DNA from: Leucosporidium creatinivorum
Lineage: Eukaryota > Basidiomycota > Microbotryomycetes > Leucosporidiales > Leucosporidiaceae
Direction of reading: 5' to 3'
Assembly: GCA_001600635.1 (NCBI GenBank)
Contig: BCKL01000024.1
Coordinates: forward strand, 403,961-467,960
Length of the DNA stretch: 64,000 nt
The notes beneath the pieces are model-generated. The model had not been told where the DNA came from, did not search any database, and worked only from the letters and a program-made list of their open reading frames with translations. Position numbers and translations under genes: made by a program. This document shows positions 1,617 through 53,432 of this stretch, in pieces (position 1 is the first letter of the stretch; each line of letters opens with the position of its first letter).

Positions 1617-2513
1617 TTGGAACGACGAGTCGAGAGGTGAGCTCCATCGCAGCCTTCGCCCTCTTCGCCGAGCCTCGCTGACCTTCTCTCGCTTCGCAGG
1701 GAGGTAGTCGTGCTTGCTTCGAGACGAGGAAAGGAGATGCGCTGGATACGACGATTTTGATCAACCTGCATTGCTTTCCGTCAGCGCCGAATCCGAGCAA
1801 GTTCAGAGCGAGAGAAAGGAGCAAGCCTGCTCGGCGCATGCGAAGGGAGCTTTCGGAGTGCTGCAGACAGCTAGCACCGACTCGCAGAGAGAAAACAAGA
1901 CTATTAGTCGAGCTTGCCTCAGACGAGAGCCATGCATCGACCTACAACTCGACCCCACTCTGCGCGCAGTCCCCTCCCCTCAGCTGAGGGTCGAGAGCGA
2001 ACTTCGAGCCAGCGCCTCTTTCCCTCCCGCTTCTCGCTCGACTTTGCTTCTCTCGCCCCTTCGACAGCTCTCGACTCGGACAGAGAGCTTTACTACACCT
2101 CGCCTACCCTCGACTGCTTCCCCTTTGCCTGCTCTTCAAGGAGGACTCGCTCAGCTCGACAGGTCGGAGCGGACGGACGCTGTGCTCTGAGACGAGGAAA
2201 GCTGGTTCGCTGCTGCCGCTGAGAGCACTAGATAGCTCAAGAGTGTGAGTGAGGCTGCTGAGTAGTGCGCGCTGTCTAGTAGCTGTAGGAGAGTAGCTGG
2301 CTGGCTGAGAAGCGGCGCCGAGGGAGAGCGAGGAGGGCCGAGCGTCTGTTGTGATGCGAGGCAGCTTGGCGGAGCAGGAAGCGGACGAGACGATAAAGTA
2401 GACTCACTGAAGCGATGCAGAACTCTAGCTGACCATTCCCTTGTCCGCCTACAGCCGAAGCTCTTCCCCCTCCTCTGCGCCTTCCCGTCGCTCGCTCGCT
2501 TCCCCTCCTCGCC
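1617..2513 (+). repeat. Conserved A-to-B intergenic module of the F-box cassette, copy 1
   Basis: This stretch has no convincing gene of its own. It is homologous to 13286-14185 (inverted) and 51013-51894, so it belongs to the repeated cassette. It holds the downstream exon remnants of gene A, a conserved leader (GACGCTGTGCTCTGAGACG...), and a probable 5' UTR intron ending CCGCCTACAG near 2454, just before gene B. Several open frames run through it but they are not in a consistent frame among the copies. Confidence 0.65.
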
Positions 2514-3701: not shown

Positions 3702-4257
3702 GCTACATCGGCGGCAAATGGTGAGCTTTCATTCGACTTCGGCGATCTCGGCGCTCGTTTCGCAGGCTGACTTCCACTCTTCGCTCGCAGGGGACGGAGT
3801 AGGGTGACGCTTGTTCAATAGGAGGATAGTTGAAGATCTCGTTAGTGCACTATACAGCTTCTTGTGTGATCCTCGGCGCTCGAGAGAGCGAGAGCGGCCA
3901 GCGCGAGGGATCGCCGAGACTGCGAATAGAGGTGAGGCGAGGCGAGGTGACTTGACCTTTGGTACAGGATCCCAATACGAGCTGTTAAATGCTCTCTGGG
4001 CTTAGACGAGGTCTCTAACAGCCAGCTACGCCGGGATGGAAGGGCAAAGCCCAGGCAGGGCCATCTCCGCGCAGAGACAGGCTGCTGCAGCACAGCAGAG
4101 CAGCAGAAGCAAACGCCTACGATTCTAGCTCTGCTGCTGAGCAGCAAGCGAAAGTTGAACCCCTTACCCTCGACCCTCAACTCGAGCCTCTCGCTGTCGC
4201 TGTTTCCGCTCCTTCCTCACGCTCGCTTCACCTCGTCTCTCAACTCAAAACTACAGG
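3702..4257. other. Intergenic region downstream of the F-box B gene
   Basis: I see no gene here. The first 100 bases hold a further spliced 3' UTR-like segment (GTGAGCTTTCATTCG to TCGCTCGCAG) also present after copies B2 and B3. Beyond about 3810 the sequence is unique and shows no tRNA, repeat or credible ORF. Confidence 0.5.
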
Positions 4258-11723: not shown

Positions 11724-12142
11724 ATTCTCATATAGAAAGACAACAAAAGGGATCCGATTGCAGTAGTCAGCTTTGACGATGATGAGTTCGCTTGAAGTGC
11801 CATAGGCGGCTCTTTTATCATTCTGCGCACCGAGACGAGATGCCGAGAGACGAGGCGCAAGCTTTGAGAGTGTACGAGAAGAGCTCTCACTGCTCAAGCA
11901 GCTCCTCATGAGTGGGCAGGAATCTCGAAGGCGCGCCGAGCGACTGCAGTTGCTCGCTCCTCTCGGTGGCCGAATGGACGAGCGAAGCTATACAGTTCAT
12001 CAACGAGACCTCGAGCTGTTCCCACTTAGACGGTGTTTCTCCGACCCCCTCGCCTGCTAGCGAAGCGCGAAGGTCAGCTTGCGAAACGGACGCCGAGACC
12101 ACCGAACTCGAGCGAGAGCTCCCCCTTCGCCCCCGATGTAGC
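11724..12142. other. Region between the aminotransferase and F-box copy B2
   Basis: No gene seen. The part from about 12000 to 12140 is the 3' flank of the F-box B cassette and resembles 3702-3810 and 52752-52850 in inverted orientation. Confidence 0.5.
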
Positions 12143-13285
12143 TCAGTCTGCGTCGAGCGAGGGGTGGTTACCTGATAGAAACGGCGGAGCTGGAAGAGTG
12201 TAAGAGAAGCGCACCCGTGAAGTACCGCTCGTCGCCGCGAGCTTCGATGCCTCGCTCCTCGCAGAGCGCGCGCCACGCCAGCACCGCACTCTCGCTCACG
12301 AACCCGGTGCACTTCATCCTCCATCTCTTCAGCTGTGCTACGCACGGAAGCTCCAGGGCACCTTCCAGGTCGGGATCATTGTAGCTGAGACGGGTGTCGA
12401 GCAATCTTAGGTTGCTCATGAGGGGCTTGAGGCACTCGTGGAGAGTGAGGAAGGACCTCTTCTTCGTGGTTATGAAGATCAACGAGCCCTTCGTGATCTT
12501 GAGCCGCAGGGATGTAAGCGAGGTGCACGCCGACAGGAAGGTGGCCAGCTCCGAGTAGTCCAGGTGGCGGGGATACTTGAAGCTCACATGGCGAAGCTGC
12601 GGCGCCAGGTGGAGCCATACATCTCGGGAATCTCGGTATAATGCCACGTAAGGCCCTTCGAACTCTAGGCTGAGGTGTGTGAGGTGGTGGGCGGCGAAGA
12701 TGAGGGGTCGGAGGTCGTGGGGAAGCCGAGAGTGCAGGACCAGTCGTTGTAGGGAGGGCGTGGATGGGAGAGGGGAAGGCAGGTTGACTGATATCCAATG
12801 GCTGTTCTCGAGTCGTTTTAGTCCGAGATCTGCGGAACGCGGAGGAGGGTTAGCCCTCGTTCGGCGAAGATAGCGCGGGCCCGAGCTGCTCACCCAGCAC
12901 GAGCTTGGTATGCACACGCTTCACCTCCAGCTCCAATCCGATCTCAAATCTTTGGCCGCGGAAGTCAACGCTTTCGATGCCTCTTGCCACGTCGAGCAGC
13001 GATGCGAACGTCGCCAGAGCCTCCCTCCGAAGAGAGGCCACCTCCAGGCTGCGAATCACGGGGATCGGCTGGGGGCTCTGTAACCGCTCCCTAAACTTGG
13101 GGTTGGGCATCTCCTCAATCGAGATATTGCTCCACATGAGCTCTTGGGCAGGCGTAGTCCAGGTTTGAGCGACCAGGAAGGCGGCGCGGAGGTCGGACTT
13201 GGAGGAGGCAGGGGTGCGCTCCTGCTCGAGAAGCTCGAGAGTGCGATACAGTAGCTCGGGAGGGAGGTCTTGGGATGACGGCCAT
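12143..13285 (-). pseudogene. F-box family gene, type B copy 2 (frameshifted start)
   Basis: This leftward copy keeps a long, well-formed body: the F-box remainder DLPPELLYRTLELLEQE, a leucine-rich region, and the tail RGIEARGDERYFTG, with the conserved last intron and a terminal one-codon exon. At the usual ATG (13285-13283), however, the sequence reads GTCATCCCAAGAC where sisters have GTCATCCAAGAC: one extra C at codon 5. From that ATG the frame runs off the family sequence and stops; the family frame has no upstream ATG and would have to start inside, at MWSNIS (13137), losing the F-box. Either the gene is recently inactivated or this is a one-base sequencing error in a C run. The first intron (donor near 12890) looks functional. 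Confidence 0.7.
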
Positions 13286-14185
13286 GGCGAGGAGGAGTGA
13301 GCGAGCGACGGGGGGCCCGGGGGAGGAGGGGGGCTTGAGCTGTGGAAGCAGGAAAGAAACCGTCAGCTACAGATCTACATGGCTTCAGTGTATCTCCTTC
13401 AGCATCTCTGCCGCTTCTCTGATTCTCCGAGCTCCCTTCTCCCATCACAACAGACGCTCGACCCTCCTGGCTCTCCCTCGGCGCTTCAAGCCGCCGGCCC
13501 AGCGCTCTCCTACAGCTCTCAGTCACCACCCGGCTACTCAGCATTCCTACTCACCTTCTTGAGCGACCTAACACACCGAGCAGTAGCAGCAGCGAACCAG
13601 CTTCCTCGTCTCAGAGCACAGCGTCCGTCCGTTTCGAGCTGGCGAGCTGAGCGAGTCCTTTTTGAAGAGCAGGCCAGCGAGCGAGGGGTAGTCGAGGGGT
13701 GGTAGGGGTGCAGTCGAGCTTCCTATCCGAAGTCCAGAGCTGTCGAAAGGGCGAGAGAAGCAAAGTCGAGCGAGAAGGGGAGGGAAAGAGACGCTTGCTC
13801 GAGGTTCGCTCTCGACCCTCGGCTTGGGAAGGAGCTGCGCGAGAGGGGGGTCGAGTTGTACGTCGATGCATGGCTCTGAGCTGAGGCGAGCTCGACTAAA
13901 ATCCTTGTTGTCTCTCTGCGAGTCGGCTTTAGCTGTCTGTAGCACTCCGAAAGCTCCCTTCGCAAGCGCCGAGCAGGCTTGCTTCTTTCTCCCGCTCTCA
14001 ACTTGCTCGACCTCGACGCTGACGGAAAGCAAAGCAGGTTCATCAAGATTTTCGTATCCAGCGCATCTCCGTTCCTCGTCTCGAAGCAAGCACGACTACC
14101 TCCCTGCGAAGCGAGAGAGGGTCAGCGAGGCTCGGCGGAGAGTGAAAGGGCTGCCAGGAGCTCACCTATCGACGCGTCGTCCCAG
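13286..14185 (-). repeat. Conserved A-to-B intergenic module of the F-box cassette, copy 2 (inverted)
   Basis: Reverse-complement counterpart of 1617-2513 and 51013-51894, lying between the inverted A2 and B2 genes. It carries the same leader block (GAAACGGACGGACGCTG...) and a putative 5' UTR intron before gene B. No independent gene. Confidence 0.65.
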
Positions 14186-15344
14186 CTACTCGGCAGGGTT
14201 GTCTGTGTGAGAGAGAAGACGTCAGTGATGGTCTAAGTGGGCTCAGAGAGAAGCTCAGAAAACTCACCGGTGAAGAAGCGGCGGTCGTCGCGAGGCTCAA
14301 CTCCTCGAGCGCGGCAAGCTTCTTCCCATTCAGTTCGATCTATCTCCGCCAGCCCGAGTATGACATGATAACTGGCCAACTCGTCCATCTTCCAGCGGCG
14401 GAGCTCCGACAACATGGGCAACTCGAGGATTGCGACGAGCCCATCTCGGCTCGAGTTCCAGGCCAGTACAGTCGTGAGTGCAGCGAGTGGCGCACGTAAG
14501 ACGTTAATCACATCTTCGATAAAGGGTGGACCGCAGTTCCACAACTCCAGGCAGACGAGAGACGTGCAGGACGCGACGAAGCCGATGACAACCGGGGAGG
14601 CTCGACTGGTAGACTCGGTCCAGCTGTACTCGGTGGAGATCGAGAGGTGCCGAAGCCGCGGAGCTATAGCTTCCACATGTGTGACGTAGCCTTGGGGAAA
14701 CAGGTCCCCGTCTGCTCGGACTTTGAGGTCGAGAGAGGTGAGGAAGGGCGCCGCGGCGAGGATCGAGTCGAGGAGAGCAAGAGAGGGCCAGCATTCAGGA
14801 TGAATACTGAGTGTGGTGAGCTGCAGCTTCGTGTCCTGCGGAATCGAAGGATGTCCTCCGATCCTCCTTGCGAGGTGAAGCCTCTTGAGGCCTGGATAAG
14901 GAAGAGGGCTCAGCGACGAGGGCAGCGAAGGCGAGGGAAGACCGAGGGGAGCATAACACGTACCAGCGAGTAGCTCGATCCTCATTGCGCTCATATCGAG
15001 ATGACTGCGTCGCACTGCATACACCCCCAAGTCCTCGACCAAGATCTGATGCTCGGCCAACGCCTTAAGCATGGCTGGGGCCTTGTCCGAGAACAGGTCG
15101 ACCTCCCGGAGAGTGCAGCCCACGTTGGCGCGTAAAGCAGCGAGGTAGCGCACTAGACCCGTACCGCTGAGCTCGAGATTGTAAACGAGAAGCGACTGCG
15201 AAGGGTGTCGCCAGGCTCGGGCTACAAGCGAAGTCCAACCGAGAACATCGCACAACAACTTGTCGCCACCGGCGTACTCATCGTCGGCGAGAAGCTCAAG
15301 AATCCTCCTCAGCAGCTCGGGGGTAGATCCTGGATGACTGCCAT
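14186..15344 (-). pseudogene. F-box family gene, type A copy 2 (frameshifted start)
   Basis: Leftward type A copy with the start MAVIQDLP (15344), a full leucine-rich body, one mid intron, the tail RGVEPRDDRRFFTG and the conserved terminal exon ending PAE then TAG. At codon 8 the sequence is CTACCCCCGAG where sisters have CTACCGCCCGAG, a one-base deletion that brings a TGA at codon 12. The family frame is then open from just downstream through ATG 15258 to the end, so nearly everything except the start is intact. As with B2, a real indel or a sequencing error in a C run are both possible; the open body suggests that if real it is recent. Confidence 0.7.
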
Positions 15345-16710
15345 GTCGAGGGAGCGAGCAGGTCGAAGTGAGAGTCGGCGAAGGAGGGGGAGGGGAACGG
15401 TTCTGCGGACGGGTACGACGAGGATCAGCATGCGACTCTCACACGTCAGTGTAGACTGCTGCTTTTCTTCACCTCGCTACAGTTCTCTCTGCAGCTCGCC
15501 AGCCCCCACAACTGAGCAGTCTCGCTCGACACGGACGCCGTCCAGCTGCTATTCGCTGATCCTCGTCCCGGGACCAGTAACAGCAGCTCCTTATACATCC
15601 TTGCCCGTCGCTGCCCCCGCCCAGTAACCCCCGACTCACCTTCAATCTCCAGCAAGCACGCGTTCCTTTCAGCAGCTTCCAGCAAAGCGTCCTCTCGAGC
15701 TCGTGATGAGGTGCAGCGGTCGAGTGGGCGTGTAGCAGTCGAGTAGAGCTTCTTTCTGTAGCCTTCCGGCCGAGTCGAAGCGGCGGAGATGAGAAGACGA
15801 GATGAGACGAGTGAAGCGGGAGAGGGCAAGAGGGAGAGAGCGGGGAGGGGGAAGGCGACTTGGGAGAGGGGGGATTGGTGGACTTGTGAGAGGGCAGAGC
15901 AGTGTAGCTGACTCTCCATACTCAACCTCTTCTTACTGTATCACGGCGGCACGCTCTCGTGAAGCTCTCCTTTCGCCGAGGTCGACTTCGCCGAGCAGCG
16001 CCGAGCAGTCACTTCGCAGCGAGAGCAGTCCCTCTTCGAGCTCTCTGCGCCGACGCAGCAAACTGTCTCCTACTTGCAAGCGAGCTCCTGCTTCTATACG
16101 CCCCAACTTGATTACAGGCAGTCCCCTCGACCTTTCGCTCGCTCAGCGCTCTCTCCCCTGCTCCCCTCCGCCGTTCTCCTGAACACAGCCTCACGTCGGC
16201 CCGCAGTGACATGTCGCACCAATCAAAAACCTCTTCTGCCCCTTTCCACCCCTTGAGCGATGGCGCCTCCCTCTCCCTCTCGCCTTCGAGGAGGGTCAGA
16301 GGAGGAACTGGGCGAGCGTTCAGCAATGGTGCCCTCTCCTCGCCTCGCACTGCCTTCACCCGAGAGTAGAGAGAGAGGAGGACAAGAAAGAGGTCTGGGG
16401 ATGGATCTGGGGCGATTGCGAAAGCCCCGACCTCTGGGCTGAGGAGGAGGAGGCTGATATGTGCCCGGCGTGGAGGAGGGAGTGAGAGGGTGGGAGAGGG
16501 AGGTGAATATAGTGAGAGAGGAGTATCGTGAGATGAGCTTGAAAGGGTCGGGATGAGCCGAGCAAGCGAGCTCCAGCCATCGGAGCGAGGCTGAGCCTTC
16601 GCAGCCTCCACTGAACACCGCATGCGACGAGGAGATGCGAATGAAGCCTTGAGCGTGTTACATAAGATGAGAGAGAGTCGACTGTTGATCCTTGAGAGTT
16701 CCCTGAGCGC
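15345..16710. other. Leader of F-box A2 and gap to UPRT
   Basis: 15345-16000 is the inverted type A leader: the 5' UTR intron (acceptor side near 15400, donor near 15648), the CTACACGCCCACTCGACC-like block near 15740, and the CGAAGTCGAC...CGGCGAA block near 15970. From 16000 to 16710 I see no gene I can name. A 52-codon frame starting MSHQSKTSS at 16210 has a plausible serine-rich composition but no supporting junctions. Confidence 0.45.
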
Positions 16711-28873: not shown

Positions 28874-31800
28874 CTAGTTCGTGAAGAGAGCCCTGAAGAG
28901 CTTGACGTGCCAAGGAGCGAGAGCGCGCTCGGCGCGGTACTCGCGCATCTCCTCGACGGTGAGCCATGACTTGCGACCGGTCTGGAGGTAAGAACCGAGG
29001 CGTCAACATCTTCGTGAGAGGCGAAGAGGCGACCGGCAAGCCGCCAAGGAGGCATTGAGGAGATCGAAGGCCGAAACTCACGTCGAGGTCAATATCCTTG
29101 AGAGCCTTGGGGAGGGTACGCTTCCAGACGAAGACGATGATCCAGATTCCCAGGAGGATGGGAGCGGCGAGGTAGGCGAGGAAGAAGTCTTGCACGGCCT
29201 GGCGAGGATCCTCCGACCTTCCTCCGATCGGCCAGACAGCCTAGGGAGAGGGAAGAAGGGTCAGCTTCAAGCGTCGGTGAGGTGTGAGGTCACACCGGGA
29301 ACTATCGACGTACGATGTAGAACTGGATGCACGCTGGAAGTCAGCGCACTGAAGAGAGTCGAGCGAATGCTCGGCGTTGTCTCACCTGAGCAATGAGGAC
29401 CAAGACGACAAGGACGCAGCCGAAAATTGAGCCATAGATACCTCCCATAGCGCGGAAGGGAAGCTCCTCGACCGAATGGCCTGATGAACAAGACGGGGAT
29501 GTCAGCTCGGCGCAGCAATCCAGCCTTCAACAACTTGGGGGCGCACCCTGAAGCTTCCAAGCCATGCGGAAGCTGTAGGAGAGCAAACGTAAGTGGATGA
29601 CGGAGCCAAGATCTGAGCACGTGACGTACCGAATGTGACAGAGGCAGATAGCTCTACGGAAGCGAACGCCGGACATCAGCGCCGAGCTCCATAAGGGTGA
29701 TGCAGGGAGGAATTGCTGTGACTCACCCCCAAGTGAACAAGGTACTCAGACCGGAAAGAGCGAGAAGCCAGTTGAAGACATCCTAGAAGAGCAAGCAGAC
29801 GCATGCAATGTCGAAGGGAGAGAGGAACGAGCCAGGTCAGCGCGCGCCGAAGGTGGGTCAATGTCGAGGCCTTACCGGTCCCGAGGCGGAGACGTTCACG
29901 TAGGCGATCTGTAGAGATGTATGAGTATTCGGCGCGAGATCGAGAAACGCTGGAGAGCGCTTACAGGACCCCAGGCGAGCACGAAGAGCACCGACCAGAG
30001 AGGGCGACCGGACTTGTCGACGTAGGAGAACACGCGAGGAGCATATCCCGTCTCGGCGAGAGCTGTGAGGACACGAGATCCAGCGTAGACGCAGGAGAGA
30101 CCGATGGAGAGGACCGAGATGCAGATGGTGACGTTGATGAGGTGGTTGAGTCCAGCAATGCCGGCCTTGTCGATCATGATAACGAAGGGAGAGGTTCCAG
30201 CAGTTCCATCATTTCCACCGAGGAGGCGCTCGTCGTTGTAAGGGAGGTTGAGACCGATAATGAGGAGGGAGCTGGATCGCCGAGAAGAGCTAGAGTTAGT
30301 GTCAAGATTTGTGAGGGGATGGGACAGCGGACACACGAGAGGTAGATGACAGTGATGCGCCAGAAGGTTCCCTTGACCGCAGCGGGCATGGTCTTGCGTG
30401 GATCGGGCGTCTCGGTAGCGGCAAGACCAACGAGCTCGGTTCCGGCTGAGAGAAGGCGGGGAGAGAGCTAATTAGCTCGGCTCGGTAAAGTGCAGCAACC
30501 AAGATTTTGAGCACGCGCAGAGCCCGTTCAGCTCCCCTGGGCTTCAAACAGCGACCAGACTCACCGAAAGAGAAAGCGGCGGTGACGAAAACGGCGCATA
30601 CTCCCTTAAACCCATTCGCGAGCGGTCCAGGATCCCTCCAGTATCTTCCTCCAACGTAAGACGTGTAGCTCCCATCCCCTGTGTCGGGTCCAGCTCCGCA
30701 GTTGACGACCTGTTTCGGCGAGTGCATCAGCGCCGAGCTCGCTTGATTGAGGGAGAGGTTTCGTACGATGCCGATGAAAATGAACATAACTACAACGAAG
30801 AGCTTGAGGCAACTTGACCAGAACTCTTCCTCGGCGAAGCTGTAGTAGAGGGGAAGAGCAAGGTCAGCCTTCGAAGATCATCGCCGAGCCCGAGCCCACC
30901 CAGGCGTCTTGAGGGCAGTCGACGTACCCGAGAGTGCCGAAAATGTTGATGAAGATGATAAGGAACCAGAAGCTACGGCATGGAGAGCGTTAGTGAGCAT
31001 GTCATCAGCGACCGTCTGCTCGGTGACCGTCTGTTCGGCGCCGGCGAAGTGCTCAGCGTCACCAACGCTGTCTAATACTTACATGGTGATCCAGCCGGCA
31101 ATCGGCACGCCGCCCGTCCAATATTGTACAGTGATACCAGCGGCAGTGAGCTCGACGGGAAGAGTGACCGTCCATTGAACTGTGAACGAAAGCTGAGTTT
31201 AGCCCGAGCGGTAGAGAGACATGCCGCTTGCGGGAAGAGAGACGCACGCAAGTAGTTCCAGCCGAGAGAAACACCGAAACCCTCGTCGAGGAAGCGGATA
31301 GCTCTAAGAAGGGAGAAAGGTTAGTCTGCGGTCGCCGAAATCCATTCGACGATGAAGAATAGGACATACAATGTGTAGAAGCCTCCACTGACGGGGTACA
31401 TGATACACATCTCTCCGAGACATTGAGTGACGTTGATGAGCATCTGTACGAGGGTCAGCGAAGGCGGGCGAGGGAGGTCAGTCTTCGGCGTTCGTTCGGA
31501 TCAGTCGAGAGACCACTCACGATTCCGATGAGTGACCAGGCGATAAGGATTCCGAGGGGTCTGTACAAGTGTCGTCAGCGAGGCTGCCTGGGAGCGTACA
31601 GCGAGAGGCGGCGCACCCTCCGTTGCGAAGAGCTGAAGGCAGTGAGCAGGCAGCGCTCGTTTCTGGCAGTTTACAGCCCATCCGCACGTCGCAAAGAGCT
31701 CACCTTGACCACTGCCGATGAAGAGTCCGGTTCCGATGGAGCCTTTGAAGCGAGCGAGCTAAGGTCAGTCGCCGAGCCGAGAATGGCGAAGCTCGGTCGC

Positions 31801-32920: not shown

Positions 32921-35900
32921 CTAGTTGCTGAAGAGAGCGCGGAACACCTTGATGTGCCAGGGAGCGAGAGCTCGCTCGGCGCGGTACTCGCGCATCTCCT
33001 CGACGGTGAGCCACGACTTGCGACCGGTCTGGGGTGGGAGAAAATAGGTTAGCAAGGATGTCCGACTGGAAGCGACAAGCAGCAAGCCAGCCCAAGACGG
33101 CTGTGCGAGCAAGAACCGAGACTCACGTCGAGGTCGATATCCTTGAGCGCCTTGGGGAGGGTGCGCTTCCAGAGGTACACTCCAAACCACAGAGCGAGAA
33201 GGATGGGGAACGCGAGGTAAGAGAGGAAGAATGCCTCGGCGGCCTTCATGGGGTCGGGGTCGGTTCCGCCGATGGGCCAGACAGCCTGGAGGAGGGAAGC
33301 AAGGTCAGCTCGTTGTCTGAAGGGGCGTCCAGATCACACCGAGTAGCTGTGACGCACAATGTAGAACTGCAGAGACGAGAGAGGGGTTCAGCGCGATGAA
33401 GGGGAGCGAGGCGAAGCTCGGCGATGGCAAGAAGGCGGGCTCACCTGAGCGATAAGAACCAAAACGACGAGAACACAGCCGAAGACGGATCCCCAGATTC
33501 CACCCATGGCGCGGAAGGGAAGCTCTTCGATCGAGTGACCTGTGAGAAGAGGGAACAGGGTCAGCTCGGCGCACGTCCGAACGGCAAGGAGTCATCAACG
33601 CACCCTGAAGCTTCCATGCCATGCGGAAGCTGCAGGAGCAAATAGTTCAGTAGGCGGAGAAGTGGAGATGGACTGAGTGGGGCGTACCGAATGTGGCAGA
33701 GGCAGATGGCTCTGCGAGAGGGAAAGTCGAGAGTCAGTGCTGAAGCTTTCGTCGTCTAGATTCAGAGATGGTGACGTACCCCCAGGTGAAGAGAGTACTG
33801 AGACCAGAAAGAGCGAGGAGCCAGTTGAAGACGTCCTGTGGATGAAAAGAGGAGAGGCAGAAGGGAAGAGCCGAGAGGCCGGGTTGGAAGTCAGCGACCG
33901 CTTAATGAGGATGTGTCGGCCGTGATACGCAGACGTACACCTCCGGAGGAAGAGACGTTGACGTAGGCGATCTGAGAGAGTAGGAGAGGGTCAGCTACTG
34001 CTCAGGCGATGGAACGAAGAGTAAAGCCGACTCACAGGTCCCCAAGCGAGCACGAAGAGAACCGACCACAAGGGACGTCCAGACTTATCGACGTAAGCGA
34101 AGACACGAGGGGCGTATCCAGTCTCGGCGAGCGCGGTAAGCACACGAGATCCAGCGTAGACGCAGGAAAGGCCGATGGAGAGGACCGAGATGCAGATGGT
34201 GACGTTGATGAGGTGGTTGAGGCCAGGGATACCGGCCTTGTCGATCATGATAACGAAGGGGGAAGTTCCAGCAGTTCCGTCGTTACCGCCGAGGAGGCGC
34301 TCGTCGTTGTAGGGGAGGTTGAGGCCGACGATGAGGAGGGAGCTACAGCGCCGAGATGGGATAGGGTCAGCGCTCAGCGGGAGAGGCGAGATGGAGGCTA
34401 GCGCACGAGAGGTAGATAACAGTGATACGCCAGAAGGTTCCCTTGACGGCGGAGGGCATGGTCTTGCGTGGGTCGGGAGTCTCGGTGGCAGCAAGTCCGA
34501 CGAGCTCAGTTCCGGCTGCGAGGCGAAGAGAAGAAGCGGTCAGCACGGTCCTTCACTACTGCACCACTGCTCAGTGCACATCACTGCTACTCCGAGTGGA
34601 GCTCCTTGTGCCCCTCGGGCTGCGAAAGACTGTCAAACTCACCGAAAGAGAAGGCGGCGGTGACGAAAACGGCGCAAACACCCTTGAATCCATTCGCGAG
34701 CGGTCCGGGATCCCTCCAGTATCTGCCTCCGACGTAAGAAGTGTAGCTCCCATCCCCCGTGTCGGGCCCAGCTCCGCAGTTGACGACCTGTTTCGGCGAG
34801 GGAGCGTCAGCGCCGAAGACGGTCGTCGAGAGAGACATAGCGAACGATTCCGATGAAGATGAACATGACGACGACGAAAAGCTTGAGGCAACTGGACCAG
34901 AATTCCTCCTCGGCGAAGCTGGAGAACGACGAGAAGAGGGCGAGGTCAGCCGCCGAGCTGATCGCCAAGGCCGTCTCCTCAGCCTTATGGGAGCGGTGGA
35001 CATACCCAAGAGTACCGAAAATGTTGACAAAGATGATGAGGAACCAGAAGCTACAACGCCAAGAGCGTCAGCGACCGTCTGCTCAGCGCCGAACTGTTGA
35101 GCGCGACTCACAGCGTAATCCAGCCAGCGATTGGAACGCTGTCTGTCCAATATTGTACAGTGATACCCGCTGCCGTTAACTCGAGGGGAAGAACGACGGT
35201 CCATTGAACTGTAGGGATACGAGCGGAGGTCAGTACGAGTCGAAGAGTGGCGCCGAATCGTCGCCGAGTCGGAGGAGGAGATGCTACGCACGCAAGTAGT
35301 TGTAGCCGAGCGATACACCGAAGCCCTCATCGAGGAAACGAATTGCGAGCGTATAAAATCCACCACTGACGGGGTACATGATGCACATCTCTCCCAGGCA
35401 TTGCGTGACGTTGATGAGCATCTGAAGGGGTGCAGCGAGATGTGTCAGCGTTCTGCACGCCTGGCGAACAGTTGTATGTATCCCTCTTGCCTCCTTCTCG
35501 CCGGTGGTGCGCCCTTAAAGCCGCACCACCACGATCAAGCTTCGGCGCTCGGCGCTCGGCTCGGAGCTGTTCGGCTTCTCTTCCTTGGAGACTTGAGCCT
35601 GAGGTCAGACGACTCACAATTCCGATGAGCGACCAGGCGATGAGGATTCCGAGGGGTCTGTAGGAGAGTCGTCAGTACGGACTCGTCGTGAGCTGAATGA
35701 CGAGGGGCAGCGCACCCTCCGTTGCGAAGAGCTGGAACGAGAAGGAAGGTCAGCGCTCGTTCTGCAGGCTGTGGCGCTTCGCGGTATCATGAGGAGACTC
35801 ACCTTGACCAGTTCCGATGAAGAGACCCGTTCCGATTGAGCCTGTAGAGCAAGCGGCGGGGGATCAGTCGCCGAGCCGAAAACGGCCAAAGCTCATTTGC

Positions 35901-44461: not shown

Positions 44462-45360
44462 AGCGGATGGGAGTAGTGGGTTCAGATTGTACAGAAAAAC
44501 GTCGTTCATCAGGCGGCAATATGAGTGTCGTTAGTCGCATCGTTTCTTGTCGAGACGAGAGCTCGGCGAGTCGGCGGAGGAGGCCGGATCTCGAGTAGAG
44601 TGCTCTGGCCTGCGACCGGGGTTTCAAGTGAGTTGAGACGTTTCTCTTGCTGTCAGCGTCCTCGAAGCAGGCTCTGCTCCGCTGCAACGAGTTCGGCGCT
44701 GCTCGGCGAAGTGGACCTCGGCGAAAGGGAGGGCTCGACGAGAGCAGCTGGCTGAGGTGCACCCAGCTAGGACTCTGATCGTACTACCCAGCTGCAATGT
44801 TCTGCTCCCCCATCAGTTCACAGACACCCCCCCTCTCCAGCTCCCCTGCCTCGCCCTCCCCTGGCTCGCCTCCCTTGCCCTCTCCCGCTTCGCTCGTCTC
44901 ATCTCGTCTTCTCATCTCGCCGCCGCCACTCGTCCGGAAAGCTACAAGATACAGCTGTACTCGACTGCTACACGCCCACTCGACCGCTGCACCTCATCAC
45001 GAGCTCGAGAGGACGCTTTGCTGGAAGCTGCTGAAAGGAACGCGTGCTTGCTGGAGATTGAAGGTAAGTCTAGGGTTTCTCGGCGGTGGGAGTGAGGGGA
45101 TGGGATGTAGAGCCGCCTGCTGCTGCTGCTGCTTCTGGGATTGGAATTGAGGAACAGCAGCCGGGGAGGGGAGGCCCCGGTGTTGAGCGATGCTGCTCAG
45201 TTGTGGAGGCTGCCAAGCTGCAGAGGGAACGGTAGCGAGGGGAAGAAGAGCAGCTGTTGAGACTAACTTGTGGGAGTCGCATGCTGATCTTCGTCGTACC
45301 TCCCGCAGGGCTCTCCCCCTACCCCTCCTTCGCCGATTCTTCGCCGCTCGCTCGCTCGAC
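44462..45360 (+). promoter_or_regulatory. Upstream region and spliced leader of the solo F-box A copy
   Basis: No gene. It contains the recurring block GCTCGGCGAAGTGGACC near 44700, the CTACACGCCCACTCGACC block near 44960 and a 5' UTR intron (donor about 45063, acceptor about 45308), as in the other type A leaders. Confidence 0.5.
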
Positions 45361-46514
45361 ATGGCCTTCATCCAGGACTTACCCGCCGAGCTCCTCTACC
45401 ACATTCTCGACTTCCTCGCTCAAGAGGAGGATCCAAAGGACGAGGCACTCGAGGAATACCTCGACAGCCACCTCTACCGAACCGCCTTAGTTGCTCGAGC
45501 ATGGAGGTGTCCATCGCGCTAGCTCTGCCTCCGCGACCTCGAGCTCACCAGCTTCAATACAGCCCGCGATGTTCGACCGGAGGAGCGTCGTCCCCAGTTC
45601 CAACTCTACCTTTTGCCCGCTTCGGCGCCGGCCGTTCTCAAAATGTTGAGGGAGCTGAATGTGACCGTGCAGTTGCTGGCCGCAGAGAACGACGGGATGG
45701 GTCGCACGGTAGATATGGGCTTGGTCTCTCTAGGACTCCTCCAAGGTGCGTTATCCGTCGGTCAAACGGCGCCGAGACTGACCCGCTTCTGGCGCCCCAA
45801 CAGGCCTCAACCACCTTGACTTGACCGGAGCCTTTTCAGAAGCACCGATTACTCCTTCCGACGCTAAGCTCAATCTCAGAGCTCTGGAGCTTACGGCACA
45901 CTTCTCGGAAACGTCCAATCTCGTCTTCGTCGACAGCCTCCTCGCCGCGGCACCCTTCTTGACCACTCTCGTGCTCTGTGGAGACTTGGAGTGGTACACC
46001 TTTCCGCAGAGCTACGCACCAGCGCTGGAAGGCATCGCTCCTCAACTCCGACACCTATCCCTGAATCGCTGGATCCTGCACCTCGACTCGGAGTGCCCGC
46101 CCTCGGTCGACCTTCTCCACTTCGTCACCAGCTGCACCTCCCTCAAATCTCTGCAGCTCGGTATAGAGGCTCCTGCCGATCTCAGCGCAATTCTTCGTGC
46201 ATCCCGGGCCTCCCTCGACGTACTCGACACTTACCTAGGTTTCGATGCCTGGCCGCACCGAGTTGCCGAGCTGGCCGCCGTCCTGGACCTTGCTGCTGTG
46301 GGGGAGCTGAAGCGGTGGAGGATACCTAGCCTTGGAAGTGCGGGTGGCTTCTCGATTGAGTCAGCTAGGACGCAATGGGAAGACGCCTGCCGAGCTCGAG
46401 GAATTGAGCCTCGCGATGACCGGCGCTTCTTCACCGGTGAGTCACGTGCTAGTCAACTCTCTTGAGACCAGACAAAGCTGATACTGTCTCTCTACCTACA
46501 CAGACCTTTGTTAG
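45361..46514 (+). pseudogene. F-box family gene, solo type A copy (early stop)
   Basis: Starts MAFIQDLPAELLYHILDFL (F-box core) and reads RTALVARAWRCPSR, then meets TAG at 45520-45522, where sister copies continue with a Q/A codon pair. After the stop the family frame is open again through one intron (acceptor about 45805) and a complete leucine-rich body to RGIEPRDDRRFFTG, with the conserved last intron and a terminal exon ending in TAG at 46514. It has no type B partner or inter-gene module, unlike the three A-B cassettes. Likely a pseudogene with one nonsense change, unless the stop is read through or spliced out. Confidence 0.7.
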
Positions 46515-47239
46515 ATGGAGGGTGCGCCGCCTCGAGTTGAGCTTATCCGCCGAGACATGAGCTAACCTCGGCCGAGCTTCTTGCAGACGCCAACCACCTT
46601 ACAAGAGGCTCTACGAAGAGGAATCGACTGATCGAGTTCTTTACGCCGTTGGTGTTATGTACTGTGAGTTGCTGCTGGGCACTTGTGCTCCGTCAACTTC
46701 GGCGATGATCTCTCGCTCGCCTCGCAGATCGAAGTCGAGATCTTGCAACGCTGCTCTTCCCGTCTTCATTCGCGCCGAGGTCTTTGAGAAGCTAAACGCT
46801 CTCTCGCTTTGATGGCTTGCATTTGCCTGTCGCCGGATCGCGTGGAAGAGTAGGCTTCGTCTCGGCCGACTGGCCTCTCGCTCCTCTCAAGCTTGTGTAT
46901 GCTACGAGGAATAGTGTAAGCGACCAGAGATTGCTCAAGGATGATTCACGACTATTGCTCACCCCTCATACTACCTTACAGTACCTTCGGACCCTCATCA
47001 GCTTCGACCCCTCCTCTCGTGCTAGGGCTCGTCCTCGCCCTCCGCTCCTTCCATCTCGCTCTTCTCCTGCTCCCTCTTGGCGTCCCTTCCGCTTATCTCA
47101 GCTCTTCTGGGGTACGAGGATGGTCCGAGCTCGGCTGGACGGAGGGACTACAAGAATGGGAGTTGAGATGCTTCGGCGCAGGTTGGTTTCCTAGTAGTCG
47201 CCTCTCCCGCTCCCTCGTCGCCGCCCTCAAGTCTTCAAG
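46515..47239. other. Region between the solo F-box copy and the secreted repeat protein gene
   Basis: 3' UTR-like exon pieces of the F-box gene to about 46750, then the promoter of the next gene. Open frames here have no recognisable content. Confidence 0.45.
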
Positions 47240-48656
47240 ATGCTCGCTCGCACTTCCACTCTCGCCCTTGTTGCCTCCCTCGCTGCCGTCGTCGTCGCTC
47301 TTCCCTGGGGAGATGGCGAGGACATCAGGGTGAGTTGCTCTCGCTCTTCCTTCTCTCGCCTCACTCGCTGACCTTCGCTCTTACTCCTCAACAGTTTGTC
47401 GAGGTCAAGGCTATCAATGAGGACAAGTTCAAGAAGACCAAGTTCAACGTCAGTAGTCTCACCTCTCTCCCTCTAACCCCTCCTCCGAGCTGATCACCTT
47501 CTCCTCCCACTATCCCACAGGTTCACGATGCTACCGAGCACGACGCCAACTTCAACCAAGTCGAAGCCAAGGACCGCAACGTTCTGAAGGCTGTCGACTT
47601 CCGCAAGGATGAGGACGATGTGAGCTGTTCTCTCTCTCCCCTCTCTCCTCCCCTCGCTGACCCTCTGGCTCCATCCGCTCCACAGTTCGGCATCTTCAAG
47701 CGCGGCGTCGACGTCGGCGGCTTCTTCCCCTTCGGCTTCGACTCTGTCGGTGACTCGTCCCTCATCGGCCTCGGCGTTGGCTCTTCGGTCGGCCGCTCCT
47801 CCTTCGGCGATTCCTCGTTCGTGGGCTCTGGCTCCCTCATCGGACTCGGCGGCCTTGGCTTGGACAGCGGATTCGACAGCAGCGCCAGCGATTCGGTCAG
47901 TCTGGTCTCTCGCCTCACTCCTCCTCCCTTGGCCTGTCCACTCTCGCTGACCTTGCCCTCCTCCTCCCACAGTTCGACATCAGCATCTTCAAGCGCGGCT
48001 CGGTCAGCTCCCTTCCTCTCCTCTCGCCTCCTTCTCATGCTGACCCTCGTCTCCCTTTTCTCCCACAGAACGACGGCGCGAGTGACTTTGGCATCCTTCG
48101 CAAGCGCTGGTCGGGTGGAGACGGCGAGGACATCAGGGTCGGTTTTGCTCCCTTCACTCTCCTTCACTCTCCTGCTGACCTCCCTACTCCACTCAACAGT
48201 TCGTCGAGGTCAAGGCCATCAACGAGGACAAGTTCAAGAAGACCAACTTCAACGTGAGCTCTCTCCCTCCTACCCTCTCCTTCTGCTCGGCGCTGACTCT
48301 TGTCGTCCTTCAACAGGTGCACGATGCCACCGAGCACGACGCCAACTTCAACCAGGTCGAGGCCAAGGATCGCAATGTCCTCAAGGTCGTCGACTTCCGC
48401 AAGGACGAGGATGATGTATGTCTCTTCGTGCTCTTGCCCCCTTCTCTCGCTGACCTTCCGCTCCCGCCCGCAGTTCGGTATCTTCAAACGCGGCGTCGGA
48501 TCATCCTTCATCGGCGACTCTTCTTTCGACGATTCCTCCATCATCGGACTCGGCGTTGGCTCCTCCTTCGTCGGCAACATTGGCGTCGACGACTCCTCCT
48601 TCGGCGACTCCTCCTTCGACTGCTCTTTCGGCTGCTTCGGAGGCTGCGGATGCTGA
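47240..48656 (+). CDS. Secreted two-unit repeat protein with Kex2-type dibasic sites, unknown family
   Basis: Nine exons, all introns in phase 0 (47240-47329, 47395-47448, 47521-47619, 47686-47895, 47973-48002, 48069-48137, 48200-48253, 48317-48415, 48474-48656), 295 residues. Residues 1-20 form a clear signal peptide (MLARTSTLALVASLAAVVVA). Exons 2-3 (FVEVKAINEDKFKKTKFN, then a 33-residue charged exon from VHDATEHD to DEDD) recur as exons 7-8 with a few changes. Each unit ends FGIFKRG and leads into a Ser/Gly/Phe-rich segment. Candidate Kex2 cuts follow Arg87 (IFKR), Arg159 (ISIFKR), Arg174 (ILRKR) and Arg241 (IFKR). The last 11 residues carry four Cys (CSFGCFGGCGC). I recognise no domain family. 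The layout suggests a prepro-protein cut into repeated peptides, but a structural cell-wall protein is also possible. Confidence 0.85.
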
Positions 48657-49851
48657 TCTCTCAAAAGGTACGCTTCTCCCTCCCGCTGCCCCACCCTCCT
48701 TCCCTGCGACTGACCCTCTTGCCTTCTCTCCCACAGCTCACCGCTGAGGCCCACCTTGCCTCTTTGCTTCTCCCCTTCTTGTGACCTCCCCTTTCCCTTT
48801 TTCTTTCTTGTACACCCCTTGCAACCCACCCATTTTCTGCCTCATCATCTCGTTGCCTCACCGAGAGCTGCATACCATCCCGAACGCCGAGCCTGCTTCC
48901 TTTCTGCTGTCCCTCGACCGAGCTGCTTCCCTCGCTTCTTGCCTTCTTCTGCTCTGGTCCCATTCTTCTGAAACTCGAGCTCCCCCTCGTCGTGCTGCCC
49001 CAGCTTGTAGCTCGTCTCCCTCTCGCGAATGGCCCACGCTTCTCTCATGGCCGAGCAGCTTGCGTCGCGTTGTTCGATTCTGGCGACTTCAGCAGGATCA
49101 TGAGGGTGTGCGGTACTCTCCGGTAGTAAACAGGTACCGTATCTTGCCCGAGAACACTCAAAACAAGGGCTATGCCTCGCTGCAAGCCGTTCGGTGCTGC
49201 TGCTCGGCGAAGTCGACCTCGGCGAAAGGGAGGGCTCGACGAGAGCGCTTCGCTGATGTGCAGGAAGCCCAGGAGTCGGAATCGAGACGCAGCTACACTG
49301 ACCTGCTCCTCACCAGCTCACCAACACCTCCTCTCCAGGTCGCCCTCCCTCTCCCCACTCTCTCCCTCCCGCCCTCTCCTGCTTCACGCGTCTCATCTCG
49401 TTTTCTCGACCACGCCACCGCTCGACTAGGGAAGCTATAGAAGGAAGCTCTACTCGACTGCTACACGCCAAGACGCCCGCTGCACCTCATCGCGAGCTCG
49501 AGAGGACGCTTTCCTGAAGGCTGAGAGAGGGACGCGAGTTTGCTGGAGATTGAAGGTGAGTTTAGGGTCGTTGGGCGGTAGGGGGAAGGGTGTAGGAGGA
49601 GCTGCTGCTGCTCCTGGGGCTGTACTATACCTCTACACCAGACGCTAGAGAGCGGGGGTTTGAGTGATGCTGGAGCGGGCTCTGAGAGTGCAGACAATGC
49701 AGAAGGGCAGGCGACGGACCGCGAGAGAACGAGCAGCAATCGTACAAGTCTGAAGACCAGTAGCTGACCCGTCGTTGTCTCCTCCTGCAGTCTTTGCCCC
49801 TTCCTCACTCTTCGCCGAGTCTCCTCCGACTCGCTCGCCCGCTCGCTTGAC
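48657..49851 (+). other. 3' UTR of the repeat protein, then leader of F-box A3
   Basis: Just after the stop there is a good intron (donor GTACGC at 48669, CTGAC, acceptor CCCACAG at 48737), so a spliced 3' UTR or alternative end is likely. From about 49200 the recurrent type A leader follows, with the GCTCGGCGAAGTCGACC block and a 5' UTR intron (donor about 49556, acceptor about 49790). No other gene. Confidence 0.5.
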
Positions 49852-51012
49852 ATGGCAGTCATTCAAGATCTACCGCCCGAGTTGCTGAGAAGGGTACTCG
49901 AACTCGTCGAAGGACATTGGACACTGGAAAGCGACCCGGTGCTCGGCATGCTCAGTATGACTTCGCTCGTGGCCAGAGCGTGGAGACACCCGTCGCAGGC
50001 GCTCCTGTTCTATAACATGCACTTCAATGACTGCAGCTCGAGACCCTGCACCGAAAGGCTACGCTCGAACGCCGGCCGAACTCTGCAGCTCGTTTTGCTC
50101 GGCCGTCGCATCTCAAGGCGAACACTGTCGGTGTTGGAGGAGAACGAGATCTCCGTCGTGGCTTTGGACCTATTCCAGACGTGGGCGACTGACGTTGACC
50201 TGAGTATGATTAGTCTCACGTTACTCGCCGGTGCGTGTGGTGGCATAGAGGGAGCCACGCCGAAGCCTTCACTTACTTCTGCCCTTCGCAGGCCTCAAAT
50301 CGCTACACATCGGCGGTGATCTCCAGGGACGGCCCAGGATCCCGTCGGACATGAGTCTCAGCCTCAGCCACCTGAGCTTCGACACAGCGCGCCTACATTG
50401 TCTGCCCTTCCTCGAGTCTATCATTAAGGCTGCTCCTTGCCTCACCTCTTTCGAGTTGGTGTTCGGACAGGACGAGGAATCGCTTCCCGCGGACTATACC
50501 ATAAGGCTACAACCTCTTGCCCAGCAACTCCGCCATTTCAGCGTCTCTTTCCCGTACATCTATGACGCCCATTCCCCCCGACCATCTCGCGACGTCGGCC
50601 GCCTCGTTGCAGCCTGCACCTCCCTCACATCTCTCGAGCTCAACGGCTGTAGCACATCCTTCATTGCGGAGATCGTCTCCGCCTCCACCGCCAGTCTACT
50701 CGTCATCGAGACGGGGCTAGCCTCGGGCTGGAATGATGAGGGCAGCGGAGTCGCCGAGCTGGCGTCCGTGCTTGAGCTGCCTGCGATGAGGACGCTCAGA
50801 CGCTGAAGAATGGACGATGTGGACGCCTGTAGCAAGCTGCTAGCAAAGGAAGATAGAGCTGCGTGGGAAGACGCTTGCCGAGTTCGTGGAGTTGAGCCTC
50901 GCGGCTGGCAACGCTTCTTCACCGGTGAGTTCTCCTCATCCTCCCTCTGAGCCCGTTCAGATCATCGCTGACCGCTTCTTATCTTTCAGACTACCCTGCC
51001 GAATGCCTGTAA
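49852..51012 (+). pseudogene. F-box family gene, type A copy 3 (nonsense)
   Basis: Begins MAVIQDLPPELLRRVLELVEG, has a full first exon (LVARAWRHPSQALLFYN ... LLAG), a mid intron (acceptor about 50291) and a leucine-rich body. At 50804-50806 a TGA stands where sisters have the conserved Trp codon (KRW, here RR then stop). The frame stays open beyond it to GVEPRGWQRFFTG, the conserved last intron and a terminal exon. The tail also departs from the RDDRRFFTG consensus (RGWQRFFTG), consistent with relaxed constraint. A protein lacking about 45 C-terminal residues could still be made, so this could be a truncated gene rather than a dead one. Confidence 0.7.
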
Positions 51013-51894
51013 CGACAAGTCGAGAGGTGAGCTCCTTCGCAGCGCTCGCGCGTCTCCGCCGAGCCTCGCTGACCTTCTCTCACTTCGCAGGGAGGTTGAT
51101 GTGCTTGCTGTCGAGACGATGTGAGGAGATGCACTAGATATGAAGATGTTGGTGAATGTACTTTGCTTGCATCCAGTGTCGTGGTCTGCAACATGGCGAG
51201 CGGGAGAGCAGAAGGATGCTCGGCGCTGGGGAAGGGAGAAGATGGAGCAGTGCAGACGGCTCGAGTCAACTCGCAAAGCCACGAGGAGAGCTGCAGTAGA
51301 GCTACATGTAGCTGAGCGCCGTCCATCGACCTACAACTCGAGCACCCTCTCGCGCTCTCCCCTCCAGGTCGAGAGCGAACTTGGAGCCCGCGCCTCTTTC
51401 CCTCCCGTTTCTCACTCGACTTTGCTTCTCTCGTCCACTCAACAGCTCGTGACTTGGATAGGAAGCTCTACTACATCTCAGCTATACCTCGACTCCACCT
51501 CCCTCGCCTGCTTTTCAAGGAGGACTCGCTCAGCTCGACAGCTCGAAACGGACGGACGCTGTGCTCTGAGACGAGGAAAGCTGGTTCGCTGCTGCTGCTG
51601 GGTGTGATAGATCGCTCGAAAAGGTGAGTAGTACTGCTGAGTAGTCAGGTGGTGACTGGAAGCTGTGGGAGAGCGCTGGGCTGGCGGAGAACCGGCGCCG
51701 AGGGAGAGCGAAGAGGGTCGAGCGTCTGTTGTGATGCGAGGCAGCTTGGCGGAGCAAGAAGCGGACGAGACGATAAAGTAGACTCACTGAAGCGATGCAG
51801 AGCTCTAGCTGACCATTCCCTTGTCCGCCTACAGCCGAAGCTCTTTCCCCCTCCTCTCCGCCTTCCCGTCGCTCGCTCGCTTCCCCTCCTCGCC
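51013..51894 (+). repeat. Conserved A-to-B intergenic module of the F-box cassette, copy 3
   Basis: Homologous to 1617-2513 in the same orientation, and closest to it over the last 300 bases ahead of gene B. It holds leader blocks and the putative 5' UTR intron of gene B (acceptor CCTACAG near 51834). Confidence 0.65.
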
Positions 51895-52751
51895 ATGGCC
51901 GTCATCCAAGACCTCCCTCCCGAGCTTCTGTATCGGATTCTCGAGCTCTTGGGATCACCCTGCGCCTACATTTTTAAGCCCGAGACGCTCCTCGCGCCTT
52001 CCCTCGTCGCTAGGGGGTGGACCGAATGGGCTCAGCGTTTGATGCTCATGGCCGTTCAAGTCGTTTCTACAGAGAAGGACCATCGCCTGTTGAAGCGTCT
52101 AGAGGGCAGCGATACAACACCGCTTGTATGGGCAGTGGATTGGCGTCTTCGTCAGGCGGACGACATTGAGGCGTTCGGCCGAGTGTGCCAGCAGGTGGGA
52201 GGGATCGAGTGTCTCGGGGTCCACAGCCCGTACACTGCGGCAGAATCATGGCTGGGAATAGACGTGCTGTACCCGGTGCTCATCAGTGAGTTCACCCCCA
52301 GTCCTCCCGGCACTGGCGGACGCTGACTTTCCATCGCTCCTCGGCGCTCAGCGCTCAACGTCAAGCAGCTTGACCTCTTCACCAGGATCAACGGTTCCCT
52401 TACCTACCCGTTAACACATCCGCTTCCTCTCGAACGCCTCAAGCTATATGCCGCCTACCTGCCTCCCTCCCCTCGATCCAACACCACGAGCGCATCCCTC
52501 GGCGCCGAATTTGGAAGCACTTCCTCCTTCCTGCTTTATCAGGGCTCAAGCGCTGGAGGACGGAGATGTACCCGCATGAACAGGGTCGTGAGCAGGAGCA
52601 GAAGGAGTTTATGGAGGCGTGGACGGAGCTTTGCAAGGAGGCAGGTGTGGAGGCTCGCGGCGACGAGCGCTACTTCACTGGTGAGCTTCTCCTGCATTTT
52701 TCCAGCTCCTCCCGAGACTCAGCTGACCTCTCCTCACTCTCCGCAGACTAA
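51895..52751 (+). pseudogene. F-box family gene, type B copy 3 (internal deletion)
   Basis: The first 130 codons (MAVIQDLPPELLYRILELLG...) and first intron closely match the intact copy at 2514-3701. In the second exon about 334 bp are missing at 52471-52478: the junction is the 8-bp word CCTCGATC, which in the intact copy occurs at both deletion ends (3088-3095 and 3422-3429). The remaining 3' part is nearly identical, including the tail exon, but in another frame, so the product would end in unrelated sequence. This is a clear microhomology deletion of a recent copy. Confidence 0.85.
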
Positions 52752-53432
52752 GCTACATCGGCGGCAAATGGTGAGCTTTCATTCGACTTTGGCGATCTCG
52801 GCGCTCGTTTCGCAGGCTGACCTCTGCTCCTCACTCGCAGATAGCCGGGCGAGGGACATGGTCGATAATAACTGCGTAGTTAGGTGATCTACACAGACTC
52901 ATGAGTCAGTCAGCCATCGATAATCGAGAGCGAGCAGCGTGGACTAGGAGAGAGCATCGCCGAGCGTCCGCCCTCTTCCCGCAGGTTGCATCTTGACTGG
53001 CAGATACCCACGAAGAGGCCTAGATGCAGTAGAGTGATATGACTAAAGCGTATCGCTCACGACTAAAGACCCAGAGCGGCCGAGTGACTCGACCTCGGCG
53101 ATGGCGAGCCGCCCCTTCGCTCGCGAATCGTCTGTTTCGAGCTCGGTGACCATGGAGAAACATACCCTCGACTGAAACTACGCTGCCTTTCCAGCCTCAT
53201 GAATCTTGGACTCTTTAAGAGCGAAGTTGCGACGGCAGTGAGCCCAGCCTCTCTTGCGCTCCTCCCGTTTCTTCGTCTGCGCTTCCTCTCGCTTCGACAC
53301 CCAACAGCAGACTTGCACAGCACAGTCGCTTCCTCCACCTCTCGTCTACTATTCCTCAGGTCTCGACGCAACCCACTGCTTCTCGTCATCCTCTCTCGAC
53401 TATCGACACCTCGTGCCGGCCTCTACAGAGCT
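52752..53432. other. 3' flank of cassette 3 and promoter of the lipid-droplet hydrolase
   Basis: The first 100 bases repeat the 3' flank of gene B. The remainder is unique, with no gene seen. Confidence 0.45.

What the first reader, a model, noticed from the sequence alone, without database searches (positions are those of the whole stretch)
47240..48656. Secreted prepro-like protein built from an exact exon-block duplication, with four Kex2-type sites
Seen: a signal peptide; two copies of a 51-residue charged segment (exons 2-3 and 7-8), each followed by FGIFKRG; two Ser/Gly/Phe-rich segments sharing LIGLGVGSS/IIGLGVGSS and SSFGDSSF; two further dibasic ends (ISIFKR, ILRKR); all introns in phase 0. 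If the signal is cut after residue 20 and Kex2 cuts after Arg87, 159, 174 and 241, the two charged pieces come out at equal length (67 residues) and alternate with the S/G/F-rich pieces, plus a short peptide ending ILRKR. Known: fungal Kex2-processed repeat proteins yield signalling, repellent or toxin-like peptides. Inferred: this is a new member; I recognise no family.
Basis: partly seen in the sequence, partly recalled or inferred. Interest (0 to 1): 0.85.

Follow-up and report, generated by a model that had tools for sequence, protein, structure and literature searches.

The report
Fungal peptide precursor with swappable middle
A yeast that looks like a Leucosporidium carries a family of apparently secreted precursor proteins in which two similar charged pieces frame a middle piece that differs completely between some gene copies, with the difference starting exactly at a probable protease cutting site; what the pieces do is unknown.

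Summary
The gene model holds: 9 exons, 8 phase-0 introns, 295 aa, four KR sites; the two 51-residue blocks match at 49 of 51 residues. The gene is one of at least nine family loci in its genome. Three searches of 5.8 billion proteins found ten relatives: three from Leucosporidium scottii, six from L. creatinivorum, one unnamed metagenome protein. The unit duplication is thus old and family-wide, and kept by purifying selection (unit 1 against unit 2: dN 0.016, dS 0.815). Dibasic sites after unit 1 and before unit 2 occur in 9 of 9 two-unit proteins readable at both (not independent). The middles form three types, each in at least two species; types I and II may be distant kin, type III is like neither. 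Against A301 and B342, homology (81-88% upstream) stops at the first KR codons and resumes 7-12 residues before Arg174. Most likely this is a Kex2-cut secreted precursor with exchangeable middle pieces. Secretion, cleavage and function are untested; structure prediction gave no confident model. It fails the published criterion of three or more repeats for Kex2-processed repeat proteins.

The parts
47240..47329 (+). Exon 1: signal-peptide-like start (aa 1-20) and start of unit 1
   Evidence: a like exon found in 6 other loci of the own genome. SignalP not available
47395..47448 (+). Exon 2: unit 1, FVEVKAINEDKFKKTKFN
47521..47619 (+). Exon 3: unit 1, VHDATEHD...KDEDD
47686..47703 (+). FGIFKR: dibasic site 1 (Arg87) and left edge of the differing middle
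47704..48070 (+). Middle not shared with A301/B342 (type III, S/G/F-rich): rest of exon 4, intron 4, exon 5, intron 5; homology resumes between 48071 and 48084
47973..48002 (+). Exon 5: FDISIFKRGS, dibasic site at Arg159 (FKR/FRR at a like place in P0001/P0006, FDR in A301/B342)
48069..48137 (+). Exon 6: piece ending ILRKR (dibasic site 2, Arg174) and start of unit 2
48200..48253 (+). Exon 7: unit 2, FVEVKAINEDKFKKTNFN
48317..48415 (+). Exon 8: unit 2, VHDATEHD...KDEDD
48474..48656 (+). Exon 9: FGIFKR (Arg241) plus second type III piece with Cys-rich end; stands where A301, B342, C384 and E85 have a short basic last exon (HRRFRGGKKGGDFY type)
48666..48748 (+). Possible 3'UTR intron; similar sequence in paralogs, homology to A301/B342 back by about 48696-48740
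   Evidence: by eye, limits uncertain

Best explanation
A secreted prepropeptide of a family so far found only in Leucosporidium and its presumed kin. The signal peptide is removed in the ER and a Kex2-type protease cuts after the dibasic sites bounding the units (inferred). This frees two copies of an acidic, hydrophilic 67-residue piece and a middle 'cargo' piece that differs between members. Here the second unit is also followed by a cargo-like piece, so the gene reads as two [unit-KR-cargo] modules. Shown: gene structure, family, selection on the units, shared dibasic sites, three middle types, left edge of the differing block at the KR codons. Inferred: secretion, cleavage, exchange of middles between genes, and that the middle is an active product rather than a spacer. 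My guess at mechanism: the charged units are solubilising pro-pieces for cargo that acts outside the cell.
For: Sites 1 and 2 are dibasic in 9 of 9 two-unit proteins readable at both (window, A301, B342, E85, P0001-P0005), by differing residues at site 1 (FGIFKR, FISHKR, DFFYKR, FRLARR, FIFHKR). In 4 of 4 own-genome genes where it can be measured, unit 2 ends in a dibasic pair 67 residues after site 2 (FGIFKR, FKHRR, FGHRR). Units: dN 0.016, dS 0.815 in this gene. Middles: type I in A301, B342, P0001, P0006 (z 17.5-31.2); type II in E85, P0005, P0004 (z 9.6-14.8); type III ties window tail to window middle (5.3) and L. scottii P0002 (5.5), and P0002 to the 140-kb locus (7.8). Within types I and II the middles are about as conserved as unit 1 (0.48-0.93 against 0.53-0.94 in nine pairs), unlike mere spacers. 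Against A301 and B342 identity is 1.00 at 47680-47699, then falls to alignment noise, and is 0.85 from 48080. A301 and B342 middles are closer at synonymous sites (dS 0.075, 45 codons) than their unit 1 (0.529), as expected of separate histories. P_proprotein (kexin) match at C1:694970-695312.
Against: No RNA, proteomic or SignalP evidence. The right edge of the differing block lies 7-12 residues before Arg174, not at a KR. The window middle does not match P0002 directly (z 1.7, 20 of 300 shuffles as high); it is tied in through this gene's own tail. Types I and II may be distantly related: all 12 pairs between them have z 0.7-2.9, best 4 of 300. Arg159 is not conserved (FDR in A301, B342). 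The pair after unit 2 is absent in all five two-unit relatives from L. scottii and L. creatinivorum (P0001-P0005; the one RR in P0002 lies in an apparent retained intron). Hydrophobic cargo is seen here only: the four other middles computed have GRAVY -0.38 to -0.02. The 9 proteins are related, P0003/P0004 nearly identical, so they are not nine independent tests. No confident structure.
Confidence: 0.62

Rival explanations
1. The units are the active product and the middles are spacers, as in alpha-factor-type or repellent-type precursors: two copies of one extracellular peptide per precursor, acting as signal or surface coat.
For: Units are shared by members whose middles differ in kind; 40-44 of 51 residues kept between window or A301 units and same-position L. 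scottii units; single-unit members with Gly/His/Lys-rich tails exist (C6:542 kb, C6:558 kb, P0010).
Against: Within a type the middles are about as conserved between species as unit 1, for example 23/38 against 40/51 (A301-P0001) and 44/69 against 32/51 (E85-P0005).
Confidence: 0.35
2. Secreted but uncut, low-complexity cell-surface or matrix protein; the dibasic sites are exposed linkers.
For: Charged and S/G/F-rich low-complexity segments; number of dibasic pairs only weakly beyond composition (P 0.033); no confident fold.
Against: Dibasic pairs kept in 9 of 9 proteins while neighbours change; left edge of the differing block on the KR codons.
Confidence: 0.22
3. A killer-toxin or antimicrobial precursor in which the units are pro-pieces and the cargo is the toxin.
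For: Hydrophilic units (GRAVY -1.00) alternate with more hydrophobic pieces (+0.42, +0.46); Cys-rich end; differing cargo types, as conflict would favour.
Against: No toxin family matched; the other four middles computed are acidic and not hydrophobic. No immunity partner was looked for.
Confidence: 0.12
4. A non-functional or rarely expressed duplicate inside a duplicating F-box-like/LRR array.
For: 6 of 6 loci on C24 and at C6:85-141 kb lie 1.2-1.7 kb from an F-box-like match; two of nine loci are degenerate.
Against: This gene is intact; dN/dS of its units against each other and 8 other units is 0.02-0.24, E85 unit 1 left out (against window unit 2 it gives 0.34; against window unit 1 dS could not be computed).
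Confidence: 0.06

Closest known systems
Kex2-processed repeat proteins (KEPs; PMC6339444, PMC7329392, passages only)
   Same: Signal-like start, pieces separated by KR/RR; five fragments after cutting
   Different: Two copies of the unit only; the PMC6339444 pipeline keeps patterns of at least three fragments, so such precursors fall outside it; middles of different kinds between paralogs
Ustilago maydis Rep1 repellent precursor
   Same: Basidiomycete, Kex2-cut repetitive secreted precursor (as told in PMC7329392)
   Different: Rep1 gives at least 8 similar pieces; here two 67-residue units and differing middles; Rep1 did not appear among the hits and was not compared directly
Ece1p/candidalysin precursor (PMC5784256, passages)
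   Same: Several KR-bounded pieces in one secreted precursor
   Different: Described as not repeated (PMC7329392), with seven KR motifs; no relationship tested
Frog-skin preprodermaseptins (PMC3742671, passages)
   Same: Conserved signal and acidic pro-piece ending in Lys-Arg before a changing mature piece
   Different: Animal; one pro-piece and one cargo at the C-terminus; here the unit also follows the cargo. Analogy only

Membership tests
Kex2-processed repeat protein (PMC6339444 pipeline) | Signal peptide by SignalP, no membrane segment by TMHMM | not testable with these tools
   Programs not available; by eye MLARTSTLALVASLAAVVVA ends V-V-A
Kex2-processed repeat protein (PMC6339444 pipeline) | At least four fragments after cutting at KR/RR | tested here: met
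   Five fragments; rule read
Kex2-processed repeat protein (PMC6339444 pipeline) | At least three fragments of one pattern | tested here: not met
   Two units and two related S/G/F pieces
Kex2-processed repeat protein (PMC6339444 pipeline) | KEX2 in the genome | tested here: met
   P_proprotein match at C1:694970-695312, best E 5e-12, over cut-off; catalytic domain not checked
Rep1/repellent | Sequence relationship to Rep1 | tested here: inconclusive
   Three searches returned only Leucosporidium proteins and one unnamed one, but only about 8000 candidates sharing most 5-residue words were scored each time; Rep1 not compared directly
Alpha-type pheromone precursor | Repeated peptides of 9-24 aa (PMC6339444) | tested here: not met
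   Units are 67 residues; range read
Any Pfam family or solved structure | Match above Pfam cut-off, or significant PDB match | tested here: not met
   only matches below cut-off seen; best E 1.3 and 0.24

The most novel reading that the evidence does not exclude
A fungal constant-carrier/variable-cargo system: an acidic unit ending in a dibasic site serves as a portable pro-piece, and different cargo peptides are swapped behind it within phase-0 exons, the swap beginning at the protease site. Cargo types are older than the species, as expected if conflict or self/non-self recognition keeps them.
Probability: 0.22. Interest if true: 0.82.

Novelty: new variant of a known kind. Interest (0 to 1): 0.58.

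Why it matters
A published survey pipeline for Kex2-cut fungal precursors asks for three or more repeats (PMC6339444), so two-unit precursors like these are passed over by design. If the exchange reading is right, this is an easily tested fungal case of modular evolution of secreted peptides, in which a replaced segment begins at a protease site.

Tried and rejected
Mating-type linkage: both STE3 matches are on contig C25, not C24 or C6; homeodomain genes were not searched. The L. scottii mating-type paper is not held.

Known families: Pfam, PDB sequences and three homology searches gave no relative outside Leucosporidium save the unnamed P0007, which shares stretches with L. scottii P0001. 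Each homology search scored only the roughly 8000 candidates sharing most words, so distant relatives may be missed.

Structure: AlphaFold on L. creatinivorum P0004 and P0010 gave mean pLDDT 37.7 and 46.6. Both models draw two helices per unit; at that confidence I ran no fold search.

Recent duplication within this gene: rejected on synonymous distances and introns. Caution: A301 and B342 unit 1 differ by dS 0.529, more than the window pairs, and gene conversion could blur all of this. The 22-unit protein tree (51 columns, 3 starred branches of 19, four label changes each) could not order duplication against speciation.

Plain fast divergence of the middle: rejected because introns beside it stay similar between window and A301/B342 (intron 3: 0.90/0.87; introns 6 and 7: 0.70-0.77) against a shuffled mean of 0.53 (measured for one intron pair), while the middle is at noise.

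Pattern search found 0 places: my pattern began TTTGG, the gene has TTCGG, so it says nothing.

Papers: no held paper has both 'Leucosporidium' and 'KEX2'. None of the rows listed appeared to treat this family; most of those searches had more hits than were listed.

Full report
Observation. The gene at 47240-48656 was rebuilt from the DNA: nine exons, eight GT..AG introns of 58-77 nt, all phase 0, 295 residues. Cutting after a 20-residue signal-like start and after Arg87, 159, 174 and 241 gives 67, 72, 15, 67 and 54 residues. The two 51-residue blocks differ at 2 residues and 16 of 153 bases. The last 12 residues hold four cysteines, the only ones after the signal-like start. The number of KR/RR pairs alone is weak evidence: four against a shuffled mean of 1.3, P = 0.033.

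A family. The 27.7-Mb own genome holds at least nine family loci (the search gives lower bounds). On contig C24: about 301, 342 and 384 kb (A301, B342, C384; the last has a run of N) and the window gene. On C6: 85 kb (E85), a degenerate one at 140 kb, two single-unit genes at 542 and 558 kb with identical unit proteins, and a degenerate one at 553 kb. Ten database proteins are relatives: P0001, P0002, P0009 (L. scottii), P0003-P0006, P0008, P0010 (L. creatinivorum) and P0007 (unnamed metagenome source). No Pfam match reached cut-off and no PDB match was significant. That the genome is a Leucosporidium (Microbotryomycetes) or close kin is inference.

Old duplication under constraint. The two-unit layout is shared by window, A301, B342, E85 and P0001-P0005. 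Within the window gene, unit 1 against unit 2 gives dN 0.016 and dS 0.815. Same-position units are closer: window unit 1 to B342 0.204 and A301 0.331; window unit 2 to A301, B342, C384 and E85 0.205-0.300 (NG86, 51 codons, noisy). A301 to B342 unit 1 is 0.529. Introns agree: window intron 1 matches A301/B342 intron 1 at 0.82/0.80 and its own intron 6 at 0.68. So the duplication probably came before the C24 copies. E85 looks mosaic: unit 2 is close to the others (dS 0.16-0.25 to C24 unit 2s), unit 1 far (dN 0.36 to window unit 1).

Conserved cut sites. 9 of 9 two-unit proteins readable at both sites have KR or RR after unit 1 and KR before unit 2 (window, A301, B342, E85, P0001-P0005). Not counted: C384 (N gap), P0006 (apparent read-through, only site 1 readable), P0007 (no clean units; it shows both sites) and single-unit members. 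The nine are related, so this is not nine independent tests. In the own genome, unit 2 also ends dibasically 67 residues after site 2 in 4 of 4 genes that can be measured; P0001-P0005 lack that pair. Arg159 is matched by FKR/FRR in P0001 and P0006 but by FDR in A301 and B342.

Middle types. Eleven middle or tail pieces, most trimmed of their shared last nine residues, were compared pairwise against 300 shuffles (55 pairs). Type I: A301, B342, P0001, P0006 (z 17.5-31.2). Type II: E85, P0005, P0004 (z 9.6-14.8). Type III: window tail with window middle 5.3, with P0002 5.5; P0002 with the 140-kb locus 7.8; window tail with the 140-kb locus 3.0 (2 of 300). Window middle with P0002 is not significant (1.7), nor with the 140-kb locus (1.6). 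Types I and II score slightly positive in all 12 pairs (0.7-2.9), so they may be distant kin; the highest pair of type III with another type is 2.0. Each type is in at least two species. Within types I and II the middle is about as conserved as unit 1 (0.48-0.93 against 0.53-0.94 in nine pairs).

Edges. Window and B342 are 87.6% identical over 46992-47713, window and A301 81.1% over 46550-47713. In 20-base steps identity is 1.00 at 47680-47699 for both, then drops to alignment noise; it is 0.85 at 48080-48099. The left edge is at the last codon of FGIFKR (47703, Arg87). Upstream steps mostly lie at 0.70-1.00, with lower ones in introns (down to 0.35). BLAST puts the return of homology at 48071 (B342) or 48084 (A301), residues 162-167, which is 3-8 residues past Arg159 and 7-12 before Arg174: the right edge is not at a cut site. 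After unit 2, exon 9 stands where A301, B342, C384 and E85 have a short basic last exon, and homology returns in the 3' untranslated part. Since introns on both sides are also similar, replacement explains the middle better than fast divergence. A301 and B342 middles (dS 0.075) are closer than their unit 1 (0.529), again pointing to separate histories of the parts.

Surroundings. 6 of 6 loci on C24 and at C6:85-141 kb lie 1.2-1.7 kb from a match to an F-box-like family of at least 74 places; the three loci at C6:542-559 kb lie over 380 kb from the nearest such match on C6. About 1.3% of the genome lies within 2.5 kb of such a match, but these loci look like segmental copies, so this is not six tests. 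The F-box label is weak: 0 of 5 window frames matched Pfam at E 0.001 and 2 of 6 matched F-box-like models below cut-off at a looser limit.

Mechanism and function. I take it as a Kex2-cut secreted precursor (0.62); a kexin-type P domain is present. Whether unit or middle is the active product is open: conservation of the middle within types, together with differences in kind between paralogs, leans to cargo. Frog preprodermaseptins give a parallel for an acidic pro-piece ending in Lys-Arg before a changing cargo (PMC3742671). Passages only were seen of PMC3742671, PMC6339444, PMC7329392 and PMC5784256; all other papers only as listings.

Noticed in passing
window about 143-3800, 12000-15440, 45288-46465, 49768-52900: F-box-like/LRR-type gene arrays (MAVIQDLPPELL...), at least 74 matching places genome-wide, many on C20, C24 and C6; Pfam F-box scores weak and below cut-off.
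   Followed up: partly
L026 4015-5063 and L028 from 2738: Single-unit family members with Gly/His/Lys-rich tails and no unit 2; unit proteins identical (51/51), 6 of 153 bases differ.
   Followed up: partly
L024 (C6:85 kb): Mosaic-looking gene: diverged unit 1 and type II middle with a common-type unit 2 and basic tail.
   Followed up: partly
P0001, P0002, P0003, P0008: Database protein models seem, by eye, to carry retained introns.
   Followed up: partly
window 29896-30877 and 33991-35444, minus strand: Frames in the two places share long identical stretches (permease-like by recall), suggesting a local duplication.
   Followed up: no
window 64000: The window ends at the end of contig C24 (467960); no TTAGGG in the last 2 kb.
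   Followed up: no
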